Source: Phototrophicus methaneseepsis
GTDB taxonomy: Bacteria > Chloroflexota > Anaerolineae > Aggregatilineales > Phototrophicaceae
NCBI RefSeq assembly: GCF_015500095.1
Contig: NZ_CP062983.1
Span: 3,162,001 to 3,226,000, forward strand
Length of the DNA stretch: 64,000 nucleotides
Direction: 5' to 3'
Part shown: piece by piece, positions 12,063-46,927 of the stretch
Numbering within the stretch: the first letter of the stretch is position 1
How the letters are laid out: each line of letters opens with the position of its first letter
The notes under the pieces: generated by a model
What the model saw: the letters and a program-made list of their open reading frames with translations, nothing else
Database searches by the model: none
What the model was told of the DNA's origin: nothing
Program-made: the position numbers and the translations under genes

Positions 12063-12068
12063 AGAGTC

Positions 12069-12240
12069 GCCTGCAATGTTCGTGATGGAGCGCTACATTT
12101 TGGGCCAACACTCATCAAAATTAGGGATTCGGGTCTGGTTTTAAGGTGATAGGCTTGAGCCAAGACCTAACTAGGCAGCAGGATCCCGCCCTGCATAGCA
12201 GGTCTCAAAATTTTCCTTCACACGGCATCGCAGGTTGGCA
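12069..12240 (+). ncRNA. ssrS: 6S RNA
   Basis: This is a non-coding RNA of about 170 nt with its own promoter and terminator. The ends pair in a closing helix: 12069-12078 with 12226-12235 (nine of ten pairs), then after an internal TT/G loop CGTG (12081-12084) with CACG (12221-12224). The same arrangement (ATG-TT-CG opposite CG-G-CAT) closes E. coli 6S RNA, as I recall that sequence. Inside lie an AAAATT/AATTTT helix and a long imperfect terminal hairpin built from GGTCT/AGACC. 6S RNA binds the housekeeping RNA polymerase by mimicking an open promoter. In Bacillus subtilis a 6S gene also lies near aspS, from memory. Confidence 0.72.
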
Positions 12241-22100: not shown

Positions 22101-22130
22101 ATGAGCACTTAACAATATAGTCTGACTAAA

Positions 22131-22424
22131 GGCTTTGAGCTGGGAGAGTACAGACTGCAACGGTGTTCAGAGAGTCATCCATGATGCTGCGAGGATGATA
22201 CACGCGACAGTTTGGAATGGGCCGGGGAGCTGCAAGGGCGAACAGCAACTTATTGTTTGTTGTAAAGTAGCCTGCGACGGAGCGCGTACCGTTATCACAA
22301 CGCAAAGTATCGGCCCTGTGGCCCGTACTTAATGAGTGGCGTCTAGGCGTGAGCTGGATGCAATCAAGGTGGCACCGCGAGAGTTCTTCTCGTCCTTGAG
22401 TGAAGGATGTGAAGGACTTTTTTT
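22131..22424 (+). promoter_or_regulatory. T-box riboswitch specific for tRNA-Trp
   Basis: The trp leader is a transcriptional T-box. Stem I has a base helix CTTTGAGCT/AGCTGCAAGG, then a specifier loop closed by CAGACTG (22151-22157) and CAGTTTG (22208-22214). Its 5' strand carries AGTA and its 3' strand GAA-TGG, making UGG (22218-22220) the Trp specifier. The T-box sequence GGTGGCACCGCG is at 22368-22379. Its TGGC can pair with the acceptor end of uncharged tRNA-Trp, C facing discriminator G73. A terminator stem GTCCTT/AAGGAC (22392-22417) with seven T follows. Uncharged tRNA-Trp should stabilise the antiterminator and switch the operon on. Confidence 0.92.
22392..22424 (+). terminator. T-box-controlled terminator
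   Basis: GTCCTT (22392-22397) pairs with AAGGAC (22412-22417) and is followed by seven T. It is the default fold when tRNA-Trp is charged and lies 22 bp before trpE. Confidence 0.88.
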
Positions 22425-22445: not shown

Positions 22446-23957
22446 ATGGTGCTGACCTACCGGACACGAACTGATATTTTGCCATCTCGTGAAGTGATTT
22501 ATGATCTGTTTAAGCAGGGTGACTTGGTGCCCGTGTACCGTACCTTGCTGGCTGACCTCGAAACGCCTGTGAGCGTCTACATGAAGCTCACCCAGGATGG
22601 GCATCCTGCTTTCTTGCTGGAAAGTGTCGAAGGCGGGGAGCGCGTTGGACGTTACTCCTTCATCGGTGTGAATCCCAGAGGTATCCTTTCTTTCAAAGAC
22701 AATATCGTCACCAAAACAGAAGATGGCGTCATCAATACGCGCCCCCTTGCAGAGGGTGAAGACCCGCTGCACGTGATTAAAGATGCTTTGGCGCAATATC
22801 AAGCTGTCGTAATGGATGGATTGCCACGCCTGGTTGGTGGTGCGGTTGGCTACATCAGTTATGATGTGGTGCGTTACTTTGAACGTTTGCCGAAGACGGC
22901 AACGGATGAACTTGATGTGCCGGATGCAGCTTTCATGCTCCCGGATACCATCGTGATCTTCGATCATGCCAAGCATCAGCTCATCGTGCTGGCAAATGCA
23001 CGTTACGCTGGTAATGCAGATAGTGCCTACGATGATGCGGTACGCCGGATTGACCAGATTGTCGTGACGTTGGGTAAGCCCCTGCCACAGCTAGCTATCA
23101 CAGAAGAACCGCTCAGCGATGAACTTGTCTCCAATGTTGAGCAAGCAATTTATGAAGAAAACGTTCGGCGTGCCAAGGAATACATCAAAGAAGGTGATGC
23201 ATTCCAGATTGTTGTATCGCAGCGATTTAGTCGTCGCACGAATGCCAGCCCTCTGATGATCTACCGGGCTTTGCGCGCTTTGAACCCCTCCCCCTATATG
23301 TTCTTGTTGCAATTTAGCCCTGATCTCACACTGGTTGGCGCATCGCCGGAGATGATGGTGCGATATGAGGACGGTATCGCCAGCAATCGCCCGATTGCAG
23401 GTACCCGTCATCGTGGTGCTAATGATGCGGAAGATGCGGCCCTTGCAGAAGAACTGCTGGCAGACCCAAAAGAGCGTGCGGAACATGTCATGCTGGTGGA
23501 TTTGGGGCGCAATGATCTGGGGCGTGTTTGTGAATATGGCAGCGTTAAAGTCACTGACATGATGGTGATTGAACGTTACTCGCACGTCATGCACATCGTC
23601 AGCCACGTAGAAGGCAAATTGCGCGATGACATGGATGCGTTTGATCTGGTGCGTGCGACCTTCCCCGCCGGAACGCTCAGTGGTGCCCCTAAAGTGCGTG
23701 CAATGGAGATTATCGAAGAATTAGAGGGTGTGAAGCGCGGCCCGTATGGCGGTGCTGTCGGTTATTTCAGCTTTGATGGCTCAATGGATATGTGCATCAC
23801 CATACGGGCAATTCTATTAAATGGCGATCAGGCGTATATTCAGGCGGGTGCTGGTATTGTCGCGGATAGTGACCCGGCTACGGAACATCAGGAGTGCCGG
23901 AATAAAGCCCAGGCGGCAGTAGCAGCGATTGATTATGCTGAAAATGGCCTTGTCTAA
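22446..23957 (+). CDS. trpE: Anthranilate synthase component I
   Basis: TrpE (503 residues) converts chorismate and ammonia to anthranilate, the first step of tryptophan synthesis. The N-terminal domain keeps the Trp feedback-site motif FLLESVEGGERVGRYS. The C-terminal chorismate-binding domain has IAGTRHRG, LVDLGRNDLGRV, FPAGTLSGAPKVRAMEIIEE and the final GAGIVADSDPATEHQE. It needs the TrpG glutaminase encoded two genes downstream. It is the first gene behind the Trp T-box. PabB is excluded by the intact Trp site and context. Confidence 0.96.
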   Translation: MVLTYRTRTDILPSREVIYDLFKQGDLVPVYRTLLADLETPVSVYMKLTQDGHPAFLLESVEGGERVGRYSFIGVNPRGILSFKDNIVTKTEDGVINTRPLAEGEDPLHVIKDALAQYQAVVMDGLPRLVGGAVGYISYDVVRYFERLPKTATDELDVPDAAFMLPDTIVIFDHAKHQLIVLANARYAGNADSAYDDAVRRIDQIVVTLGKPLPQLAITEEPLSDELVSNVEQAIYEENVRRAKEYIKEGDAFQIVVSQRFSRRTNASPLMIYRALRALNPSPYMFLLQFSPDLTLVGASPEMMVRYEDGIASNRPIAGTRHRGANDAEDAALAEELLADPKERAEHVMLVDLGRNDLGRVCEYGSVKVTDMMVIERYSHVMHIVSHVEGKLRDDMDAFDLVRATFPAGTLSGAPKVRAMEIIEELEGVKRGPYGGAVGYFSFDGSMDMCITIRAILLNGDQAYIQAGAGIVADSDPATEHQECRNKAQAAVAAIDYAENGLV

Positions 23958-32797: not shown

Positions 32798-33572
32798 TGC
32801 CCTGGAAGCCATGTTTCAACAAGCGGTTGAACAAGACCGGGCAGCATTTTTGCCCTATTTCCCGATTGGCTACCCTGATTACGACACATCGATTGAAGCC
32901 ATTGCTGCTATGGCAGAAGTGGGTGTCGATGGGTTTGAAATTGGCATTCCCTTTAGCGATCCGTTGGCAGATGGTCCGACGAACCAGGCTGCTACCCAGA
33001 TCGCGTTGGAAAACGGCACGACAGTCAGGTCCTGCTTGCAAGCCGTGAAAAAACTGCGTGAGCGGGGCATCACCCAGCCGATGATGATGATGGGCTATGT
33101 CAATCCGTTGATAGCTTATGGTGTGGAGCAGTTCGTCGTCGATGCGAAAGCCGCCGGGGCGGATGGTCTAATTGTGCCGGATCTGCCGCCGGAGGAAGCG
33201 CATGATTTTAGCGAAATTTGTGCGCGAGAGGGCATGGCGCTGGTATTCTTCCTGGCGCCGACGAGCAACGACAAGCGCATTGAGATGGTTACGAAGAGTG
33301 CAACCGGGTTCATTTATGTGGTGTCGCTGGTGGGCATTACCGGGGTACGGCGCGATTTACCACCGGATGTCGCCAATGTTATTCAACGCATCCGGGCCCA
33401 AACGCAGACGCCTCTGGTGATGGGCTTTGGCATTAGCACGCCGGAACATGCACGCTCGATGAATGGCCTTGTCGATGGCTTTATTGTCGGCAGTGCCCTG
33501 GTGCGTGCTGGTAAAGAGGGTGTTGCGCCTGTACGGGAATTGACTGAAGCTCTGCGGAAAGCATTGGATTAG
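32766..33572 (+). CDS. trpA: Tryptophan synthase alpha chain
   Basis: TrpA (268 residues) cleaves indole-3-glycerol phosphate to indole, which is passed to TrpB. It is a TIM barrel with FEIGIPFSDPLADGPTNQ (catalytic Glu region), MMMMGYVNPLIAYG, LIVPDLPPEEA (catalytic Asp), YVVSLVGITGVR and GFGISTPEH. It begins inside the end of the hydrolase-like gene. It is the last gene of the trp operon, and no strong terminator is visible before the aro promoter, so some readthrough into the aro leader is possible. Confidence 0.96.
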   Translation: MTATTRLQGIDALEAMFQQAVEQDRAAFLPYFPIGYPDYDTSIEAIAAMAEVGVDGFEIGIPFSDPLADGPTNQAATQIALENGTTVRSCLQAVKKLRERGITQPMMMMGYVNPLIAYGVEQFVVDAKAAGADGLIVPDLPPEEAHDFSEICAREGMALVFFLAPTSNDKRIEMVTKSATGFIYVVSLVGITGVRRDLPPDVANVIQRIRAQTQTPLVMGFGISTPEHARSMNGLVDGFIVGSALVRAGKEGVAPVRELTEALRKALD

Positions 33573-33607
33573 CGGCTCTTCCGCGGCGTAAGATATGGCT
33601 GTTCGGG

Positions 33608-33659
33608 CAATGTATTAAGCGGTATGCGTGCAAAAGGAGCCGAATGCACCCAATGTATT
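33608..33659 (+). repeat. Direct repeat CAATGTATT flanking the aro promoter
   Basis: CAATGTATT occurs at 33608-33616 and at 33651-33659, 43 bp apart (about four helical turns). The second copy overlaps the -35 element of the aro promoter. This arrangement could be an operator pair but could also be chance. Confidence 0.4.
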
Positions 33660-33686
33660 GACAATGCCTTTAAGACCCGGTATGCT
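33658..33686 (+). promoter_or_regulatory. Promoter of the aro operon
   Basis: Consensus TTGACA (33658-33663) and TATGCT (33681-33686) are spaced by 17 bp. Transcription should start near 33692, about 11 nt before the leader-peptide ATG. Confidence 0.8.
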
Positions 33687-33702
33687 TTGCGTTATTAGTC
33701 AA

Positions 33703-33801
33703 ATGCTCAAGTACGAGTCCATGACACGCGAATTCAACGCTTACCCCTATTTTTACTTTGGGAACCACATAGTAGAGAGTGGGGCGTTGCCGCGCGTGTA
33801 A
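33703..33801 (+). CDS. Tyr/Phe-rich leader peptide of the aro operon
   Basis: A 32-codon ORF starts just after the predicted transcription start and ends before the terminator hairpin. Residues 14-19 are YPYFYF, with further Tyr at 4 and Phe at 11; seven of 32 residues are Tyr or Phe and none is Trp. Leader peptides of pheA and pheST attenuators have the same logic. A second in-frame ATG at 33721 would still contain the cluster. The ribosome-binding site is weak and the 5' leader very short, so the exact start is uncertain. Its function would be to report Tyr/Phe-tRNA charging by ribosome stalling. Confidence 0.75.
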   Translation: MLKYESMTREFNAYPYFYFGNHIVESGALPRV

Positions 33802-33821
33802 TTTGACACCAGTTTGAAAGC

Positions 33822-33853
33822 AAAAGGCGCAGGGCGAACCCTGCGCCTTTTTT
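33822..33853 (+). terminator. Attenuator terminator upstream of aroH
   Basis: A 13-bp stem, AAAAGGCGCAGGG with CCCTGCGCCTTTT, has loop CGAA and ends in a run of six T. It lies 77 bp upstream of aroH and downstream of the leader ORF. Confidence 0.92.
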
Positions 33854-33930
33854 GTTGCTTCACTGCTTTGGACTAGGACAGGTTCGTATACAGCGAGCAC
33901 ATTGCGACAGGGCGCAAGGAGAAATAAATC

Positions 33931-34296
33931 ATGTTAGTGCGTGGCGCACGTGGGGCCATTACCGTGGACGAAGACACCGAAGATGCGATCATCGAAGCAA
34001 CTGAAGAAGTGCTGCGAGCGATGATTGAGGCCAATGATATTCGTGAGGAGATGGTTGCTAGTGCGCTCTTCACAACAACGCCTGATCTAACAGCATGCTA
34101 CCCGGCAAAAGCCGCACGCCTGATTGGTTGGACGAATACCGCATTGATGGGCTTTCAGGAAATCCATGTGCCCGTTGGTTTGAAGATGTGCATCCGTGTC
34201 CTGATTCATTGGAACACAGATCGTTCATTAAACGAAGTTGAACATATTTATCTGCGGGGGGCGCAAGTTCTGCGTCCTGATTGGAAAAAAGTCTAG
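33931..34296 (+). CDS. aroH: Chorismate mutase, AroH type
   Basis: This 121-residue protein belongs to the trimeric AroH class of chorismate mutases, which turn chorismate into prephenate for Phe and Tyr synthesis. Seen are VRGARGAITVDEDT at the start, ASALFTTTPDL, YPAKAARLIGW, a QEIHVPVGLKMCIRVLIHW stretch with the active-site Arg, and EVEHIYLRGAQVLRPD at the end. It has a good AGGAG site. It is the first structural gene behind the Tyr/Phe attenuator, which makes biological sense because it commits chorismate to Tyr/Phe. Confidence 0.93.
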   Translation: MLVRGARGAITVDEDTEDAIIEATEEVLRAMIEANDIREEMVASALFTTTPDLTACYPAKAARLIGWTNTALMGFQEIHVPVGLKMCIRVLIHWNTDRSLNEVEHIYLRGAQVLRPDWKKV

Positions 34297-34396
34297 GCCG
34301 TTAGTATTGAGTCTGTTGAAAACCATATCACACAACATATAGCGTATAGCATCGCAAGACAAACACACCAAATAGAGATTGAGGAACAGGTTCATC

Positions 34397-35413
34397 ATGA
34401 TTGTCGTAATGGAACAGGGCGCAACCGCCAAACAAATATCGGATGTGATTACGCGCATCGAAGCCGATGGGTACAAAGCTCATCTCTCACAAGGTAAGGA
34501 ACGGACGATCATCGGGCTGGTTGGTGATAGCCCCACGCCAAAACGGGAACAGAATTACAGTGTGATGCCCGGTGTGGATAAGGCTGTACGCATCACAGAG
34601 CCGTACAAACTGGCGAATCGGTCTTTCCAGCCGGATGGTACGAAGGTGCCACTCAATGGCTCGATGATGGGCGGGAATAAGATTCTTGTGATTGCAGGGC
34701 CCTGCGCTGTCGAAAGTCGTGAACAGATTATCGAAACAGCTTGTGCAGTTAAAGAAGCTGGCGCAACAGCCTTGCGTGGTGGGGCCTACAAGCCGCGCAC
34801 ATCGCCTTACAGCTTCCAGGGCTTTGGCGAAGATGCCTTAAAGTGGATGGCAGAAGCGCGTGAGATCACGGGTCTGCCTATCGTGACGGAAGTCATGGAC
34901 CATAACCTTGTGCCGCTGATCTGTGAATACGCGGATGTGTTGCAAATTGGTGCACGCAATATGCAGAACTTCACCTTACTTAACGCTGTGGGCGAAAGCC
35001 AGCATACCGTTTTGCTCAAGCGTGGTATGTCTAGTACGGTCCAGGACCTGCTGATGGCTGCGGAATACATTTTGCAGCATGGGAATACACGCGTGATGCT
35101 GTGCGAACGTGGTATCCGCACCTTTGAGACAGAGACGCGCAACACCTCCGATATTAATGCAATTCCTGCCCTCAAGAAGCTGACCCATCTGCCCGTCGTC
35201 TTTGATCCAAGTCATGCGACCGGGAAGTGGGAATATGTGGAGCCACTTGCGTTAGCTGGTATTGCTGCGGGTGCTGATGGCCTGATTGTTGAAGTGCATA
35301 TGGAGCCTGACAAAGCTGTGAGTGATGGTCGCCAGAGCCTCAAACCAGATGGCTTCAAACAGATGATGGAGCGTGTACGCCGCGTTGCAGAAGCTGTCGG
35401 GCGGGATGCATAA
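34397..35413 (+). CDS. aroF: 3-Deoxy-7-phosphoheptulonate (DAHP) synthase, type I beta with regulatory N-domain
   Basis: This 338-residue DAHP synthase catalyses the first step of the shikimate pathway from PEP and erythrose 4-phosphate. Residues 1-70 form a ferredoxin-like domain ([18 protein letters not shown]), as in Thermotoga DAHP synthase where it mediates Tyr/Phe inhibition. The barrel shows [51 protein letters not shown] and FDPSHATG. I chose ATG 34397, after GAGGAACAGG, rather than a TTG 18 bp upstream. Control by both attenuation and allostery is likely. Confidence 0.94.
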
Positions 35414-35415
35414 GC

Positions 35416-36723
35416 ATGACCACAGACGACAAACTGACGATCAAACCAGGGATGCCTTTGCGCGGTACCACCAGCGTCCCTGGGGATAAATCCATTTCTC
35501 ACCGTGCGATCTTGTTGGGCGCATTGGGCAATGGGGCGACAGAAGTCCGTGGTTGGTTGGCTGCCGGGGATACGGAAGCAACGCTTGGTGCTGTCCAGGC
35601 TTTGGGCATCCAGATTGATCGCCATGATACGCATACGCTCACGGTCCATGGCGGCACGCTTAAAAAGCCAGATCAGCCGCTAGATTTTGTCAATGCGGGG
35701 ACAGGGATTCGCCTGGCTGCGGGTGTGATGGCCGGGCAGCCTTTCGAGAGTGTGCTTGATGGTAGTTATCAACTGCGCCGCCGCCCGATGAAGCGCATCA
35801 CCGAGCCGCTGCAAGCGATGGGTGCCCATATCGAATCGACAGATGGGAAATGCCCGCTGACGATTAAGCCAGCGGTGCTCAAAGGTGTGCGCTATGAAAT
35901 GAACGTCGCCAGTGCACAGGTCAAAAGTGCGCTGCTGCTGGCTGCTTTATTCGCAGACGGCCCCACGACTGTTGTTCAGCCAGGCCCTGCGCGCGATCAC
36001 ACGGAGCGTATGCTCTCTTCTATGGGCGCGCAAATCGTCGTAGAGGGTAATGACGTTACCCTCACGCCGGGTGCACAGCTCCAACCTATGAACTTGACGG
36101 TGCCCGGTGATTTTTCTTCGGCAGCTTTTCTCATCGTTGCGGCACTTATCGTGCCTGATAGCGATATTACCATTACAGGGGTAAACCTCAACGATACGCG
36201 TACAGGCTTGCTGGATGTCCTGTTGGAGATGGGCGGTAATATCCAGGTGACGGAAACAGGCCTGGAAGCAGGCGAGCCGATTGGCGATCTCCGTGTGCAA
36301 TCCAGCCAGCTAAGGGGCACAACGGTTGGCGGCGATATGGTTGTTCGCATGATCGATGAATTTCCCGTGTTGATGATCGCTGCCTTGAATGCACAGGGCG
36401 AAACGCTCGTACATGATGCGCGTGAATTGCGTGTTAAAGAGACAGACCGCATTTCCGTGATGGCTGGTGAACTGCGTAAGCTGGGTGCGCAAATTGAAGA
36501 GCGTGAAGATGGCTTCCGTATTATCGGGCAGCAGCGTTTGATGGGTGCTGTGGTTGATGGACATGATGACCATCGTGTGGCGATGAGCCTGGCAGTTGCG
36601 GGGCTGGCTGCTGCTGAAATGACCGTTGTGACAGATGCCCGGTGTGCCGGTGATTCGTTCCCTGGCTTTGCAGAGACATTGGTATCTCTGGGAGGCGGTA
36701 TGCTGCCGCAAGCGGTAGAATAG
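35416..36723 (+). CDS. aroA: 3-Phosphoshikimate 1-carboxyvinyltransferase (EPSP synthase)
   Basis: AroA (435 residues) adds enolpyruvyl from PEP to shikimate 3-phosphate. Signatures include PGDKSISHRAILLGAL, NAGTGIRLAAGVMAG, the substrate-binding RRRPMKRI, SAQVKSALLLAAL, LRVKETDRI and DGHDDHRVAMSLAVAG. It starts two bases after aroF. The second part of the NAGT motif reads NAGTGIR rather than NAGTAMR. This is the class II-like variation seen in many Gram-positive-type enzymes, which are commonly less glyphosate-sensitive. Confidence 0.95.
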   Translation: MTTDDKLTIKPGMPLRGTTSVPGDKSISHRAILLGALGNGATEVRGWLAAGDTEATLGAVQALGIQIDRHDTHTLTVHGGTLKKPDQPLDFVNAGTGIRLAAGVMAGQPFESVLDGSYQLRRRPMKRITEPLQAMGAHIESTDGKCPLTIKPAVLKGVRYEMNVASAQVKSALLLAALFADGPTTVVQPGPARDHTERMLSSMGAQIVVEGNDVTLTPGAQLQPMNLTVPGDFSSAAFLIVAALIVPDSDITITGVNLNDTRTGLLDVLLEMGGNIQVTETGLEAGEPIGDLRVQSSQLRGTTVGGDMVVRMIDEFPVLMIAALNAQGETLVHDARELRVKETDRISVMAGELRKLGAQIEEREDGFRIIGQQRLMGAVVDGHDDHRVAMSLAVAGLAAAEMTVVTDARCAGDSFPGFAETLVSLGGGMLPQAVE

Positions 36724-36733
36724 CGCTTTGTGA

Positions 36734-37072
36734 TTGCAAACACAGAATAAGGCAACGACCGTGTTGGAATGGATTTTCCTGGGCCTGAGCGCACTTGGTT
36801 GGCTCGGTGCAGCGTACTTCTTATCTCACAATCAACGCAGCCTGACGTACTGGGGCGTTTTTATTGGGGCCTGTGTGCTGGTCTTAATTGGGGTGGTGCT
36901 TGTCCTTTTCACATTTGATCCGCCGCTGTGGTTGATGCTCGTTATTGGTTTATTGCCCGTTCTGGGCGTGGCCTATGGGTACCGTTTGTACGATCATTAC
37001 AGTGAACGAGCGAAGGCCAAGCGCGAGGGCTATCAGGATGCTTATCAGGGTGAGGAGCCAGAGCAGCGATGA
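36734..37072 (+). CDS. Small membrane protein inside the aro operon
   Basis: This 112-residue protein is of no family I recognise. Three hydrophobic helices (about 12-31, 37-57 and 62-82) are followed by a basic, then acidic tail (ERAKAKREGYQD, EEPEQR). The TTG start at 36734 is the longest option; a GTG at 36761 would still keep all three helices. Its stop overlaps the aroE start as ATGA, so it is translated with the pathway genes. A role in aromatic transport or membrane anchoring is only conjecture. Confidence 0.6.
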   Translation: MQTQNKATTVLEWIFLGLSALGWLGAAYFLSHNQRSLTYWGVFIGACVLVLIGVVLVLFTFDPPLWLMLVIGLLPVLGVAYGYRLYDHYSERAKAKREGYQDAYQGEEPEQR

Positions 37073-37902
37073 ACCGAGTTGGTGTAATCGGCTGGCCGAT
37101 TGAGCACAGCCTCAGTCCTGTGATGCATAATGCCGCTTTCCAGGCCCTTGGCATGACAGATTGGCTTTACGATGCGATGGCTGTCCCGCCGGATATTGCT
37201 CGCTATGCTGTGCTGGAGCCGCAGCGCCATGGTTATATTGGCTTGAATGTGACGGTGCCATTTAAGCAGGTTGCGATGGAATATGTGCAGCCTGATGATA
37301 AAGCACGTGCCATTGGAGCCGTAAATACAATTGACTTCCGCAATGAGACAGGTACCAACACAGATGTGGATGGCCTCATCAATGACTTGGTCGCTCATGA
37401 TGTCGCGCTTACAGGCGAGAAAGTTATTGTGTTGGGGGCAGGGGGTGCTGCGCGCGCTGCTGTCTATGGACTGTGGCAGCAGGGTGCGCAGGTTGTGGTG
37501 GTCAATCGTACGAAAGAGCGCGCTGATGATATGCTCTTGCAATTGACTATTTCCGCAGGGGTGCGGAATGTCCCGGCTCTGACCCTGGATGAAGCGATTG
37601 AGAATGGCGCTTCCCTGATTGTCAATTGCACATCAGCCGGGATGTGGCCGGATGTTGAAAATAGCCCCTGGGTGAATGGCGTGCCATATCCACAAGGGGC
37701 GACTGTTTACGATATGATCTATCGGCCCGCCAGGACGAAGCTCATGCAGCTTGCGGAAACTCATGGTGGGCGTGCGATCAGCGGACTTGGTATGCTGGTC
37801 CGGCAGGGTGCGCTGAGCTTTAAGCTGTGGACAGGCGTCGAGCCGCCAATTGATGTGATGATGCAGGCCGCCCAAGAAGCCCTCGCCGCGCGACAGAAGT
37901 AA
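37069..37902 (+). CDS. aroE: Shikimate dehydrogenase
   Basis: AroE (277 residues) reduces 3-dehydroshikimate with NADPH. Seen are GWPIEHSLSPVMHNAAF (shikimate-binding SxS), NVTVPFKQ with the catalytic Lys, NTDVDG, the dinucleotide-binding GAGGAARAAVYGL, NRTKERAD, NCTSAGMWPD and YDMIYRPARTKL. It overlaps the membrane protein gene by four bases. The NRT motif fits NADP preference. Confidence 0.94.
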   Translation: MNRVGVIGWPIEHSLSPVMHNAAFQALGMTDWLYDAMAVPPDIARYAVLEPQRHGYIGLNVTVPFKQVAMEYVQPDDKARAIGAVNTIDFRNETGTNTDVDGLINDLVAHDVALTGEKVIVLGAGGAARAAVYGLWQQGAQVVVVNRTKERADDMLLQLTISAGVRNVPALTLDEAIENGASLIVNCTSAGMWPDVENSPWVNGVPYPQGATVYDMIYRPARTKLMQLAETHGGRAISGLGMLVRQGALSFKLWTGVEPPIDVMMQAAQEALAARQK

Positions 37903-37974
37903 CATTCGTTTTCATGATTTCACATAGTCAAATACCTGACGATCAGGTCAGTCACCAAGAAGGATAAAAACCGA

Positions 37975-39153
37975 ATGCCCATACGTTTTTTCACCGCTGG
38001 AGAGAGCCACGGCCCTATGCTCACTGCCATTCTGGAAGGTATGCCAGCCGGGCTTCCGTTCGATATGGAAGATATTGACCGCGACTTAAGTCGTCGCCAG
38101 CAGGGCTATGGCAGCGGTGGTCGCATGCAAATCGAGAAAGATAAGGTTCGCGTTACGGGCGGCGTCATGAATGGCATGACGACAGGCAGCCCTATTTCCT
38201 TGATTGTAGAAAATCGGGATTTTAAGAATTGGCGAGAACGCGACATCACACCTATTACAACACCAAGACCGGGCCATGCGGACCTGACCGGGGCCATTAA
38301 GTATGGCTACCGGGAGTTGCGCCTCTCTTTAGAGCGTGCCAGTGCACGCGAAACGACCATGCGTGTGGCTGTAGGTGCAATTTGTAAGCGGTTCCTGGCG
38401 GAGTTCGGCATTGAAATTGTGGGATACGTTAGCCAGCTTGGTGATGTCGTCGCACAGTTGCCCTCGGACCCGGATTATAGAGCGCTTTATGAAGCCGCAG
38501 AGACAAATGATGTTCGCTGCCCGGACCCTGAAGCTGCTGAAGCGATGCACGCCGCAATCCGTCAGGTCAAGATTGATAAGGATACGTTAGGCGGCATCTT
38601 TGAAGTTGTTGCCCTCAATGTGCCACCTGGGCTCGGTTCCCATGTGCAATTTGATCGCAAATTGGATGCTAAGTTGGTGGCAGCGATGGTTAGCATTCAA
38701 GCCATGAAGGGGGCGGAAATCGGCCATGCTTTTAAACAGGCTGGCTTACCGGGCAGCCAGGTTCACGACGAGATTGATGTCGATGAAAAGGGTGCTATTC
38801 ATCGCCGGACGAACCGCGCAGGTGGCCTGGAAGGTGGCATCACCACAGGTGATCCTATCGTGGTTAGGGTCGCGATGAAACCGATTTCTACCATGCTGCG
38901 CGGCGCTGATAGCGTCAATTTAGCGACAGGCGAAGCCGACCGCACAGCCTATGAGCGTAGCGACTTTTGTGCATTGCCGCGTGCTGTGCCAATCGGGGAA
39001 TCTATGATGGCGATTGTGCTGGCTGATGCCTTGCTGGAAAAACTCGGTGGCGACAGTATCGAAGAGATGAAACCCAGGTTCGATGCATTACGTGGCAATC
39101 GGCTGGCCGATGTGCCTATGGATAATGTGGAATGGCGCTTCGGCTATGAATAA
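37975..39153 (+). CDS. aroC: Chorismate synthase
   Basis: AroC (392 residues) converts EPSP to chorismate with reduced FMN. The family signatures GESHGPMLTAILEGMPAGL, RRQQGYGSGGRM, RPGHADLTGAIKYG, ERASARETTMRVAVGA, and the C-terminal GGLEGGITTG are present. An inverted repeat ACCTGA-CGA-TCAGGT lies in the 72-bp gap upstream, before the AGGA site. The aroK start overlaps the last codons. Confidence 0.96.
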   Translation: MPIRFFTAGESHGPMLTAILEGMPAGLPFDMEDIDRDLSRRQQGYGSGGRMQIEKDKVRVTGGVMNGMTTGSPISLIVENRDFKNWRERDITPITTPRPGHADLTGAIKYGYRELRLSLERASARETTMRVAVGAICKRFLAEFGIEIVGYVSQLGDVVAQLPSDPDYRALYEAAETNDVRCPDPEAAEAMHAAIRQVKIDKDTLGGIFEVVALNVPPGLGSHVQFDRKLDAKLVAAMVSIQAMKGAEIGHAFKQAGLPGSQVHDEIDVDEKGAIHRRTNRAGGLEGGITTGDPIVVRVAMKPISTMLRGADSVNLATGEADRTAYERSDFCALPRAVPIGESMMAIVLADALLEKLGGDSIEEMKPRFDALRGNRLADVPMDNVEWRFGYE

Positions 39154-39667
39154 TGCGCCCGGAGATAAGGCGGCGCGCCACATTGTCATCACTGGGTTTA
39201 TGGGGACAGGTAAGACCACGACAGGCCAGCTTGTGGCACAATTACTGGGTCGTCCTTTTTATGATATGGATGCCCTGATCGTTTCACGAGCAGGTAAATC
39301 TATCCCGGAGATTTTCGCCCAGGATGGCGAGCCAGCTTTTCGCCAGATGGAACATGACTTACTCGTGCAGATGGCGCGTACTGGCGGAGATGTCATTGCA
39401 ACAGGGGGCGGCGCGCTGGTGCCGGATCGTAACCGACAATTGATGAAGTTGCATACGTTCCTCGTTTGCTTGACGGCGTTCCCGCATGTGATTGAAGCGC
39501 GCTTACAAGCTGATGGGGCAGGCCGCCCGCTGGCTGCTGGTTGGCGAGATCTGTTACAGATCCGGGCCCAGGCCTATGCTGATATTGATTACCAGATTGA
39601 TACATCGCAGCGCGAGCCTCAGGCGGTCGCGGAGGAGATAGTCGCATTATGGCAAGCCTCACAGTAA
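39146..39667 (+). CDS. aroK: Shikimate kinase
   Basis: AroK (173 residues) phosphorylates shikimate with ATP. It has the Walker A GFMGTGKTTTGQLVAQ, DMDALIVSRAG (shikimate-binding Asp), FRQMEHDLL, and GGGALV. I chose ATG 39146, which overlaps aroC by eight bases; a longer ORF to 39083 would lie inside aroC. It overlaps aroB by 19 bases. Confidence 0.93.
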   Translation: MNNAPGDKAARHIVITGFMGTGKTTTGQLVAQLLGRPFYDMDALIVSRAGKSIPEIFAQDGEPAFRQMEHDLLVQMARTGGDVIATGGGALVPDRNRQLMKLHTFLVCLTAFPHVIEARLQADGAGRPLAAGWRDLLQIRAQAYADIDYQIDTSQREPQAVAEEIVALWQASQ

Positions 39668-40692
39668 ATGCACCTCAGGGGACCTATGACATCCTCATCC
39701 AGCGTGGGCTGTTGGAGGCTGTCAAAGCTGATCCTGCTGCGTATGGCCTGGATGGACACGTGGTGATTATCAGCAATACCACGGTTGGGCCTCTCTATGG
39801 TGAGGCACTGGCACAGGCGCTGCCAAATGCCGACCTTGTCAACATGCTCGATGGTGAAGCCTATAAGTCATTGGAAACAATTGCCTTGTTTTATGACGCG
39901 CTCGTCGCAGCAGGGGCGGATCGTCATTCGACAGTCCTGGCGCTAGGTGGTGGCGTGGTCGGGGATGCAGCGGGCTTCGCTGCTGCGACGTATATGCGTG
40001 GTATTGCCCTGGTTCAGATGCCAACAAGCTTACTGGCGATGGTCGATTCCAGCGTGGGCGGTAAAGTGGGCGTCGATTTGCCCCAGGGCAAAAATCTGGT
40101 TGGCGCTTTTAAGCAGCCGGATCGCGTGTTGATTGACCCGGATGTGCTCCACACGCTGCCGCCCGAACAATGGCGTTGCGGCATGGCTGAGGCGGTTAAA
40201 CACGGCTTCCTGGCAGATGCTGACCTGCTCAACCCGGATTTACATACGCCAGAACGTGCACAAGACCTGGTGATGCGCGCTGTCCAGGTGAAGATCAACG
40301 TTGTGGAAGAAGACCCTTACGAGTATGGAATCCGCGCTTATCTTAATCTGGGGCATACCTTTGCCCATGCCATTGAGCAAGTTACAGAATATGGGTGGCT
40401 GCATGGGGAGGCTGTCGGCTTTGGCTTGTTGGCGGCGGCGAAGCTATCAGAGCGGTTGGGGCTTTGCGATGTGGCCCTTTTTGAACAGGTTGATACCATC
40501 CTCGCGGAAGTTGGCCTGCCGAGACAGATTACAGGCCTTGATCCTGCGGCTATTTATGAGGCGATGAAGACGGACAAAAAGTGGAAGAATGGACGCTCTC
40601 GCTTTGTGCTGCTGCGTGGGATGCATCAGCCTGAAATTGTGCATGATGTGCCGCGTGAAGATGTCATCGCCGTTTTAGAATCGCTGATGTAG
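39649..40692 (+). CDS. aroB: 3-Dehydroquinate synthase
   Basis: AroB (347 residues) cyclises DAHP to 3-dehydroquinate using NAD and a divalent metal. Signatures are GGGVVGDAAGFAAATYMRG, QMPTSLLAMVDSSVGGKVG, PQGKNLVGAF, CGMAEAVKHGFLAD, NLGHTFAHAIE (metal His) and HGEAVGFGLL. It starts within the last codons of aroK and ends the operon, followed by a strong terminator. With aroQ at 43.6 kb the window encodes the full chorismate pathway. Confidence 0.96.
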   Translation: MASLTVNAPQGTYDILIQRGLLEAVKADPAAYGLDGHVVIISNTTVGPLYGEALAQALPNADLVNMLDGEAYKSLETIALFYDALVAAGADRHSTVLALGGGVVGDAAGFAAATYMRGIALVQMPTSLLAMVDSSVGGKVGVDLPQGKNLVGAFKQPDRVLIDPDVLHTLPPEQWRCGMAEAVKHGFLADADLLNPDLHTPERAQDLVMRAVQVKINVVEEDPYEYGIRAYLNLGHTFAHAIEQVTEYGWLHGEAVGFGLLAAAKLSERLGLCDVALFEQVDTILAEVGLPRQITGLDPAAIYEAMKTDKKWKNGRSRFVLLRGMHQPEIVHDVPREDVIAVLESLM

Positions 40693-45523: not shown

Positions 45524-46927
45524 TTAGTGTTCCAGAACAAGCTCGTGGATGCGCTCCAGAGCTTGTTTTGATTCATTGGGCAGGAGCACCAGGGAAAGGC
45601 TGCATCCCGATGGGCCCTGTGCGACCCCCAATAAACGTAAATCGCTCAAACGCTGGAAAATCCGCGCGGTCATTTCATTGTGTGTATCCATATTTTTGCC
45701 AATAGCGGTCACAATACGCACTGGCGAAACATCCCAATCTTCACCTTCGACAGATGCCAAGGCGTCGTCAACGATCTGGTTCAGGCTGCCCGTGGCTTCG
45801 ATACCTACGCTGGTGGGTACCACGAAGCAGACCATGGTGTGTGATGAAGATTGCGAAACCAGCATGGTATCCATATGGCTGCCACTGGCTTGATACAACA
45901 CCTGATGTACTTGCTCAATCAACTCATACACCGCTTCATGTCGGCCTGTTGTGATAATAAAGCCGTGGATGCTGGTCACAGCCTTAATCGTATTGGTTGA
46001 GCTATCCGCATTTGCATGAATATGCGTGCCGGGATGCTGGGGTTTGTAGACGTTTTTGATCCGCAGCGCGATACTATGGTCTCTCAGTGGCTTAATCATT
46101 CGGGCATGCAAAATACGTGCACCGAAATAAGCTAACTCGGATACTTCTTCATAAGCGAGTTCCGGGATGATGCGGGCCGATTCGATTTCGCGCGGGTCAG
46201 CAGACATCATGCCATCAACATCAGACCAGATCCAGACTTCTTTCGCGTCCACACATAGGCTCAGGATAGACGCTGTGTAATCGCTGCCGCCACGACCCAT
46301 CGTAGTCGCTTTGCCGGTTTCAGTCACGCCGATGAAACCCGTTACAACGGGGACAATTTTGCGCGATAACATCGGCATCAGGTTTTGCTCGATGCGCTCA
46401 CAGGTTTTATCTTGAATAGGATTGGCGTTGCCATAGGTGCTGTCTGTAACAATGATGTCTGTGCCATCAATCGCGACACTTCTAACATCATTATGGCGCA
46501 GCATTGCCGCGATGATGCGCGCAGAGAGTTTTTCGCCAACGCCTGCAACGGCATCGCTAATTTCTGGCGAGAGCGTATCGCTGGGTGTATTGGAAACCTG
46601 CTGGCAGGTATCCAGCATTTCAAACAGCAAGCGATCAATATCCGCCTGAAGTGCTGTGCTTTCCAGATTACCCAGGGGCAAGTTCTCGACAAGTGCCAGA
46701 TGTCGGGTGCGGATTGTAGCGGCAATTCTGCGATAACCGCGCGCACTGCCGATCTGTGCAAGCTGTGCAGCTTCCAGCATCATATCTGTCACGCCATCAA
46801 GTGCAGATACCACTACGACGAGATGGTCCCACTGTTTTTCCTCATGCAGGATAATACTCAGAACCTGCGCGAGAGCCGCCGGAGTCCCTAAAGTGGAACC
46901 GCCAAATTTCATCACCAGGGTGCCCAT
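45524..46927 (-). CDS. lysC: Aspartate kinase
   Basis: This 467-residue protein phosphorylates aspartate at the head of the Lys/Thr/Met pathway. Signatures are VMKFGGSTLGTPAAL, VVSALDGVTDMM, the GFIGVTETGKATTMGRGGSDYTAS loop, and EVSELAYFGARILHARMI. The C-terminal about 160 residues hold two ACT-like regulatory domains. It is monofunctional, with no homoserine dehydrogenase domain. The length resembles the long LysC/ThrA-type kinases. The gene name lysC is by convention; which amino acid inhibits it is unknown. Confidence 0.9.
   Translation of the reverse strand: MGTLVMKFGGSTLGTPAALAQVLSIILHEEKQWDHLVVVVSALDGVTDMMLEAAQLAQIGSARGYRRIAATIRTRHLALVENLPLGNLESTALQADIDRLLFEMLDTCQQVSNTPSDTLSPEISDAVAGVGEKLSARIIAAMLRHNDVRSVAIDGTDIIVTDSTYGNANPIQDKTCERIEQNLMPMLSRKIVPVVTGFIGVTETGKATTMGRGGSDYTASILSLCVDAKEVWIWSDVDGMMSADPREIESARIIPELAYEEVSELAYFGARILHARMIKPLRDHSIALRIKNVYKPQHPGTHIHANADSSTNTIKAVTSIHGFIITTGRHEAVYELIEQVHQVLYQASGSHMDTMLVSQSSSHTMVCFVVPTSVGIEATGSLNQIVDDALASVEGEDWDVSPVRIVTAIGKNMDTHNEMTARIFQRLSDLRLLGVAQGPSGCSLSLVLLPNESKQALERIHELVLEH

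What the first reader, a model, noticed from the sequence alone, without database searches (positions are those of the whole stretch)
33658..33930. Tyr/Phe leader-peptide attenuator in front of the shikimate operon
Seen: a consensus promoter, a 32-codon leader ORF with the cluster YPYFYF, and pause (33724-33740 with 33784-33799), antiterminator (33782-33795 with 33827-33842) and terminator (33822-33851) helices that are mutually exclusive. The stop codon is placed so that a finishing ribosome covers region 2. Known: pheA and pheST attenuators of enterobacteria use this logic. Inference: Tyr/Phe starvation turns on aroH-aroF-aroA-aroE-aroC-aroK-aroB. Classical amino-acid leader-peptide attenuators are best known from proteobacteria and actinobacteria. 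One reading both Tyr and Phe before a whole chorismate operon in a probable Chloroflexota is, to my knowledge, not described.
Basis: partly seen in the sequence, partly recalled or inferred. Interest (0 to 1): 0.92.

Follow-up and report, generated by a model that had tools for sequence, protein, structure and literature searches.

The report
Tyr/Phe leader-peptide switch, shikimate operon
In front of the genes that build the aromatic amino acids, this bacterium carries a tiny gene rich in tyrosine and phenylalanine codons followed by an RNA stop signal, and comparison with relatives shows that the two evolve together as a probable starvation-sensing switch.

Summary
Of 184 distinct upstream regions, 148 carry an aromatic-rich ORF followed by a T-tailed hairpin; with full 450-nt regions 143/177, against 11/885 shuffles, 1/176 downstream windows, 1/177 reverse strands and 1/58 other genes. 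Phe+Tyr is the top amino-acid pair. An alignment-free co-evolution test on 147 leaders supports exactly 1:2 (Z -13.0), 2:3 (Z -15.3) and 3:4 (Z -27.8); three control pairings give Z 0.3-0.6. Best reading: a classical ribosome-mediated attenuator reading Tyr/Phe codons (Trp added in 28/147), widespread in Anaerolineae and seen in families outside that class. The start codon is more likely 33721 (26 codons) than 33703. Precedent exists: the Phe-Tyr-Phe leader AroR before aroF in Corynebacterium, so I call it a new member of a known kind, in a phylum where my ten literature searches showed none. By-products: a second copy before a paralogous DAHP synthase in the sister genome, and Thr/Met-rich leaders before aspartokinase, the window's genome included. 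No expression data were available.

The parts
33658..33686 (+). sigma70-like promoter TTGACA-17-TATGCT; start of transcription inferred near 33693
   Evidence: hexamers invariant in the 5-sequence alignment; 9/12 or better promoter-like match upstream in 125 of 147 leaders (no null computed for that count)
33721..33801 (+). leader ORF, probable form (26 codons, MTREFNAYPYFYFGNHIVESGALPRV); the longer 32-codon reading starts at 33703
33742..33759 (+). regulatory codons Tyr-Pro-Tyr-Phe-Tyr-Phe
   Evidence: sequence; aromatic cluster at this place in 148 of 184 distinct relatives
33724..33760 (+). region 1: pairs with region 2 (33724-33730/33793-33799, 33735-33740/33784-33789, 33745-33760/33768-33783)
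   Evidence: 1:2 co-evolution Z -13.0
33781..33799 (+). region 2: last codons of the leader; pairs either with region 1 or with region 3
   Evidence: co-evolution with regions 1 and 3
33827..33842 (+). region 3: 5' arm and apex of the terminator, antiterminator partner of region 2 (33781-33795)
   Evidence: 2:3 co-evolution Z -15.3
33822..33853 (+). intrinsic terminator: 13-bp stem 33822-33834/33839-33851 followed by T
   Evidence: 3:4 co-evolution Z -27.8; compensatory changes
33931..34296 (+). aroH-type chorismate mutase (CM_1), first gene of the controlled operon
34379..35413 (+). DAHP synthase
35416..36723 (+). EPSP synthase (aroA)
37069..40692 (+). shikimate dehydrogenase (37069-37902), chorismate synthase (37975-39153), shikimate kinase (39083-39667 as listed), dehydroquinate synthase (39649-40692)

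Best explanation
A classical ribosome-mediated transcription attenuator. Transcription starts near 33693 and a ribosome follows the polymerase on the leader ORF. When charged Tyr- and Phe-tRNA are plentiful the ribosome runs to the stop codon at 33799 and covers region 2; region 3 then pairs with region 4 and transcription stops just after 33851. When Tyr or Phe is short the ribosome stalls in YPYFYF and opens the 1:2 hairpins, region 2 (33781-33795) pairs with region 3 (33827-33842), the terminator cannot form, and the polymerase goes on into the operon that makes chorismate and prephenate. Shown: the parts, their geometry, their conservation and the co-evolution of exactly these three pairings. 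Inferred: translation of the leader, stalling, termination, and which amino acids trigger it in the cell.
For: Aromatic-rich ORF plus T-tailed hairpin in 148 of 184 distinct regions; 143 of 177 full regions against 11 of 885 shuffles, 1 of 176 downstream windows, 1 of 177 reverse strands and 1 of 58 upstream regions of other genes. Of all 190 amino-acid pairs Phe+Tyr is first, 117 of 177, next Gly+Tyr 56. Both Y and F in 144 of 147 clusters; synonymous codons TAT/TAC and TTT/TTC are exchanged while the residues stay. Pairing within genomes beats pairing across genomes: 2:3 Z -15.3, 1:2 Z -13.0, 3:4 Z -27.8, each 0 of 5000 permutations; controls 1:3, 2:downstream, 1:downstream Z 0.6, 0.6, 0.3; holds after thinning to 102, 67 and 30 dissimilar leaders. 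Among 144 leaders with enough sequence behind them, a DAHP synthase follows aroH in 89 and an EPSP synthase lies downstream in 41 of the other 55.
Against: No expression or ribosome data. No Shine-Dalgarno match at either candidate start in the window (0 kcal/mol at both), and only a weak one over all leaders (median -3.8, best of several starts, against -2.1 at random sites and -7.2 for aroH). On the 23-sequence alignment A2 the 2:3 helix shows no covariation above shuffles (83.3% against 82.9% paired, 157 of 500). Seven of nine loci of one family outside the class (f31) have a poor T tail and fail the detector. 36 of 184 distinct loci, several of them Anaerolineae, are negative.
Confidence: 0.92

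Rival explanations
1. An attenuator of this kind, but only one amino acid (probably Phe) is sensed in practice; the other codons are spacers or near-neutral Tyr/Phe exchanges.
For: The Phe-Tyr-Phe leader AroR of C. glutamicum is reported to respond to Phe limitation and not to Tyr (passage of PMC11802643).
Against: Tyr is the commoner residue of the clusters (41% against 29% Phe; 144 of 147 hold both, 3 hold Tyr without Phe, none Phe without Tyr).
Confidence: 0.3
2. The hairpin is simply the terminator of the upstream trp operon and the ORF is fortuitous.
For: trpA ends at 33572 and lies directly upstream on the same strand, also in 48 of 74 positive loci with at least 1000 nt upstream.
Against: The other 26 of 74 show no trpA there yet keep leader and hairpin; the only promoter-like site found lies upstream of the hairpin; ORF composition and 1:2 and 2:3 co-evolution are not expected of a plain terminator.
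Confidence: 0.02
3. A T-box, riboswitch or protein-binding attenuator in which the ORF is incidental.
For: A T-box stands before the neighbouring trpE.
Against: No Rfam family reaches its gathering score at 33500-34000; four sub-threshold hits, the best being STnc40, an sRNA model (34.2 bits, gathering 45, E 0.00028) that overlaps the terminator. The conserved feature is the amino-acid content of an ORF.
Confidence: 0.03
4. The leader encodes a functional small protein, or helps translation by re-initiation, and termination is secondary.
For: In the G000 family the residues after the cluster are also partly conserved; re-initiation at leader genes has been proposed (passages of PMC4833913).
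Against: The residues outside the cluster vary widely among 148 leaders; the C-terminal codons co-evolve as RNA with the terminator; the stop lies about 16-44 nt (5-95%) before a terminator stem, far from aroH.
Confidence: 0.03

Closest known systems
AroR leader before aroF, Corynebacterium glutamicum (Neshat et al. 2014, not held; known from passages of PMC11802643 and PMC4046766)
   Same: Leader peptide with mixed Phe/Tyr codons (Phe-Tyr-Phe) before a DAHP synthase operon, ribosome-mediated attenuation
   Different: Other phylum; three aromatic codons against five to eight here; reported to respond to Phe only; the gene led here is chorismate mutase and most of the shikimate pathway follows. 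Structural detail of AroR was not seen.
pheL-pheA and pheST attenuators of Escherichia coli (passage of PMC11802643)
   Same: Leader ORF, terminator and antiterminator logic (details partly recalled)
   Different: Phe only; control of the terminal branch or of the tRNA synthetase rather than the common pathway; the window does not match any Rfam leader model
aroF of Shewanella, listed as 'Attenuator sensing tyr-tRNA' (table passage of PMC2659441)
   Same: A DAHP synthase gene attributed to attenuation by Tyr-tRNA
   Different: No leader peptide shown in the passage; one amino acid; proteobacterium
thrL-thrABC attenuator of Escherichia coli (recalled)
   Same: Leader with two kinds of regulatory codon; resembles the Thr/Met leaders found here before aspartokinase
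   Different: Thr/Ile there, Thr/Met here; other phylum

Membership tests
Ribosome-mediated (leader-peptide) transcription attenuator | Short ORF with clustered codons for the end products of the controlled pathway | tested here: met
Ribosome-mediated (leader-peptide) transcription attenuator | Intrinsic terminator between the leader ORF and the first gene | tested here: met
   compensatory changes
Ribosome-mediated (leader-peptide) transcription attenuator | Antiterminator (2:3) exclusive with the terminator (3:4) | tested here: met
   not resolvable on the close alignment A2
Ribosome-mediated (leader-peptide) transcription attenuator | 1:2 hairpin in the leader that excludes 2:3 | tested here: met
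Ribosome-mediated (leader-peptide) transcription attenuator | Leader and first gene transcribed together from a promoter upstream of the leader | tested here: inconclusive
   conserved promoter-like hexamers; no transcript data
Ribosome-mediated (leader-peptide) transcription attenuator | Leader is translated and read-through rises when the cognate charged tRNA falls | not testable with these tools
   needs reporter, ribosome profiling or term-seq
Rfam amino-acid operon leader families | Covariance-model match above gathering score | tested here: not met
   only T-box and 6S RNA reach gathering in the whole window, elsewhere; none at 33500-34000 even at E 5
T-box riboswitch | RF00230 match in front of the operon | tested here: not met
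   the window's only T-box is at 22126-22400, before trpE

The most novel reading that the evidence does not exclude
Leader-peptide attenuation is an old and general regulatory layer of Chloroflexota that uses mixed-amino-acid sensors: Tyr+Phe (Trp added in some lineages) for the chorismate operon and for a paralogous DAHP synthase, and Thr+Met for aspartokinase. One peptide thereby integrates the supply of several products of a branched pathway, next to a T-box that handles the trp branch.
Probability: 0.65. Interest if true: 0.65.

Novelty: new member of a known kind. Interest (0 to 1): 0.5.

Why it matters
In 2010 leader-peptide systems were said to be known only in Proteobacteria and Actinobacteria (passage of PMC2965389, which itself added bacilli). 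One conserved through much of Anaerolineae, with strong co-evolution, and present in families outside that class, widens the range of the mechanism and offers well over a hundred natural variants of one switch. It gives a testable case of one peptide reading several end products of a branched pathway, and a first readable piece of amino-acid regulation in a phylum that is mostly uncultured.

Tried and rejected
Column-wise covariation on the 23-sequence alignment A2 was informative for the terminator (7 cells changed on both sides against 2.0 in shuffles, 0 of 500) but not for 2:3; 1:2 was not counted there because region 1 is misaligned. The first 2:3 test, without the terminator apex, gave a smaller effect (-13.87 against -12.87, 0 of 5000) than with the apex. 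The first upstream scan read minus-strand loci of the genome search in the wrong orientation and is superseded.

Other operons of relatives: Ile/Leu/Val-rich leaders in 3 of 30 acetolactate-synthase loci, His-rich leaders in 0 of 19 hisG loci. That script took the longest open frame as the gene, which is wrong for most hisG loci and some others, so these negatives are weak. tyrA and pheA of the own genome lie together elsewhere and showed no Rfam match or leader in the stretches read. The RNA model R1 gives 17 hits at E 10 in the own genome, of which only the window's own is convincing. Rfam sub-threshold hits were judged terminator look-alikes. L081 (labelled Planctomycetota), positive in the detector, was dropped as a chance hit before the 147-leader tests. 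Four of the 134 aroH places (in G030, G131, G145 and a second one in G140) were not fetched.

On recheck I mended: families outside the class with a positive detector call are four (f31, f41, f67, f54), not one; the start-codon statement counts the window among the five sequences; the Shine-Dalgarno value in the window is 0 at both starts. I lowered the probability of the novel case slightly, from 0.70 to 0.65, because 63 of 71 new loci read outside the class are negative in the detector, and best-explanation confidence stands at 0.92.

Full report
What is there. A TTGACA-17-TATGCT promoter (33658-33686), a leader ORF that ends at TAA 33799-33801 and holds Tyr-Pro-Tyr-Phe-Tyr-Phe at 33742-33759, and a 13-bp hairpin with a T tail (33822-33853) precede a chorismate-mutase gene at 33931. 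Pfam names the operon: chorismate mutase (CM_1), DAHP synthase, EPSP synthase, a 112-aa protein without a match at E 1e-5, shikimate dehydrogenase, chorismate synthase, shikimate kinase, dehydroquinate synthase. The nearest named relative is an Anaerolineaceae MAG, NAT117 (91% identical chorismate mutase).

Structure. The free leader folds into the 1:2 hairpins plus the terminator (-65.8 kcal/mol); 33690-33860 has z -5.85, 0 of 200 shuffles as low. If the RNA before 33766 is taken as covered by a stalled ribosome and the 3' arm of the terminator is not yet made, 33781-33795 pairs with 33827-33842. Once the 3' arm is present the terminator is the stable fold even with region 1 covered, so the switch can only work during transcription; this is also how known attenuators work (established knowledge).

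Relatives. Chorismate mutase homologues occur in 133 of 151 genomes searched, own genome included; in named genomes 93 loci were confirmed and the best 80 kept. With 30 loci, those 80, and 100 further stretches, 210 loci gave 184 distinct upstream regions. The detector asks for an ORF of at least 8 codons with at least 4 of 8 residues Y/F/W, followed by a T-tailed hairpin of -10 kcal/mol or lower; it is positive in 148 of 184. Nulls: 143 of 177 full 450-nt regions against 11 of 885 dinucleotide shuffles, 1 of 176 downstream windows, 1 of 177 reverse strands, and 1 of 58 regions before aspartokinase or acetolactate-synthase frames. Among the 80 named loci, 52 of 64 labelled Chloroflexota, 1 of 14 labelled Planctomycetota and 0 of 2 others are positive. 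Some negatives carry weaker clusters such as RYYCFPN; others show none. Testing all 190 amino-acid pairs at 5 of 8 residues, Phe+Tyr is first with 117 of 177 loci, Gly+Tyr next with 56.

Wider phylum. 99 of 201 genomes drawn from the phylum have the gene. I read 89 loci (29, 60); 85 were new, and 21 of these are positive: 13 of 14 from the same class, 8 of 71 from outside it, in families f31, f41, f67 and f54. Family f31 (I take it for the Chloroflexus group from genome size and completeness, an inference) has a Tyr/Phe-rich ORF, at least 5 of 8, in 9 of 9 loci, and a hairpin of -26.8 kcal/mol or lower behind it in 7 of 9; its T tail is poor, and the detector accepts only 2.

Co-evolution. For 147 leaders (148 less one chance hit, L081) I asked whether a region pairs better with its partner from the same genome than with partners from other genomes. 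2:3: -20.09 against -16.77 kcal/mol (Z -15.3); 1:2: -28.62 against -24.65 (Z -13.0); 3:4: -22.66 against -15.61 (Z -27.8); each 0 of 5000 permutations. Control pairings 1:3, 2:downstream and 1:downstream give Z 0.6, 0.6 and 0.3. After removing similar leaders (102, 67, 30 kept) 2:3 keeps Z -13.9, -11.5, -8.6 and 1:2 keeps -11.0, -10.6, -6.3, while the controls lie between -1.5 and 1.6. Against shuffled partners 2:3 has mean z -1.85, 1:2 -1.09, control 1:3 -0.27. In the close set A2 (23 sequences) the terminator shows compensatory changes, but 2:3 is too conserved to tell (83.3% paired against 82.9% in shuffles).

Leader details. Clusters are 41% Y, 29% F and 2.7% W; 144 of 147 hold both Y and F, 3 only Y, 28 also W; all four Tyr and Phe codons occur. 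The last aromatic codon lies 57-82 nt (5-95%) before the terminator stem. ATG 33721 rather than 33703 is the conserved start. The Shine-Dalgarno signal is poor: 0 kcal/mol at both starts in the window; over all leaders the best in-frame start has median -3.8, favoured by choosing among starts, against -2.1 at random sites and -7.2 for aroH. A DAHP synthase follows aroH in 89 of 144 leaders with enough sequence, and an EPSP synthase lies downstream in 41 of the other 55.

Copies and cousins. A covariance model of the element (R1) gives hits at E 0.01 or lower in 77 of 91 genomes of the family, in a few only over the terminator. The sister genome G001 has a second full-length copy before a paralogous DAHP synthase, with the leader ...MNPQHTYCSYYFMNHIAHRGMLSHV. 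Three further full-length but weak hits (E 0.0007 to 0.007) lie before aspartokinase, where the leaders read Thr and Met. A direct scan found Thr/Met-rich leaders (6 to 9 of 10 residues T/M) with terminators at 9 of 30 aspartokinase loci from 23 genomes, the window's genome included (MVYTINSMTTMMTTMPTYIGDGEFCTP); this is a lower bound because in some loci the wrong frame was taken. With two more loci (11 in all) 1:2 and 3:4 co-evolve (Z -4.5 and -4.7, 0 of 5000 each) and 2:3 marginally (Z -2.0, 145 of 5000; controls 0.7 and -0.4).

Known relatives. C. glutamicum has AroR, a Phe-Tyr-Phe leader before aroF, reported to respond to Phe but not Tyr (passages; the original paper was not held). E. 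coli has pheL-pheA and pheST attenuation (passage). Shewanella aroF is listed as an attenuator sensing Tyr-tRNA (table passage). A 2005 survey of Actinobacteria found no conserved RNA structure before Phe or Tyr operons (passage). A 2010 scan stated that leader peptides were then known only in Proteobacteria and Actinobacteria and added bacilli; its main text has no word beginning 'chloroflex'. Ten literature searches showed, in the listings and passages I saw, no leader-peptide attenuator in Chloroflexi. The library is open-access only, and Lopatovskaya et al. 2010, a comparative survey of attenuation seen only as a citation, could not be read. So 'not described' is a statement about these searches.

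Verdict. I file it as a ribosome-mediated attenuator, with translation, stalling and termination untested, and as a new member of a known kind because AroR is a near precedent. The breadth of conservation, the mixed-amino-acid sensors and the Thr/Met cousins are what a specialist would find new.

Noticed in passing
window 22126-22400 (+): T-box leader (RF00230, 100.3 bits) directly before trpE (22446-23957): the trp genes and the aro operon, close neighbours, appear to use two different tRNA-charging sensors. The specifier codon was not determined.
   Followed up: partly
L353 (G000 contig 1, upstream of the aspartokinase at 2705311-2706690, minus strand); also L347, L348, L350, L352, L355, L358, L359, L362, L342, L343: Thr/Met-rich leader ORFs followed by terminators before aspartokinase, with 1:2 and 3:4 co-evolution: a second leader-peptide attenuator in the same lineage.
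   Followed up: partly
L340 1028-1222, DAHP synthase 1354-2391: Second copy of the Tyr/Phe leader and terminator in the sister genome G001, before a paralogous DAHP synthase.
   Followed up: partly
L071, L073, L074, L075, L101, L169, L184 and others (28 of 147 leaders): Trp codons join the Tyr/Phe cluster in some lineages (for example FWFGYYF, YYYWFYFF), as if all three aromatic products were read.
   Followed up: partly
window 36734-37072 (+): 112-aa protein with hydrophobic stretches between aroA and aroE in the operon, no Pfam match at E 1e-5.
   Followed up: no
window 12065-12240 (+): 6S RNA (RF00013, 56.9 bits).
   Followed up: no
window 45536-46927 (-): Second aspartokinase gene of the genome (G000 contig 1, 3207536-3208927), inside the window; its upstream region was not examined for a leader.
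   Followed up: no
G000 contig 1, 4282500-4288049 (L344, L300, L301): Aminotransferase, tyrA and pheA lie together away from the aro operon, without Rfam match or leader in the stretches read.
   Followed up: partly
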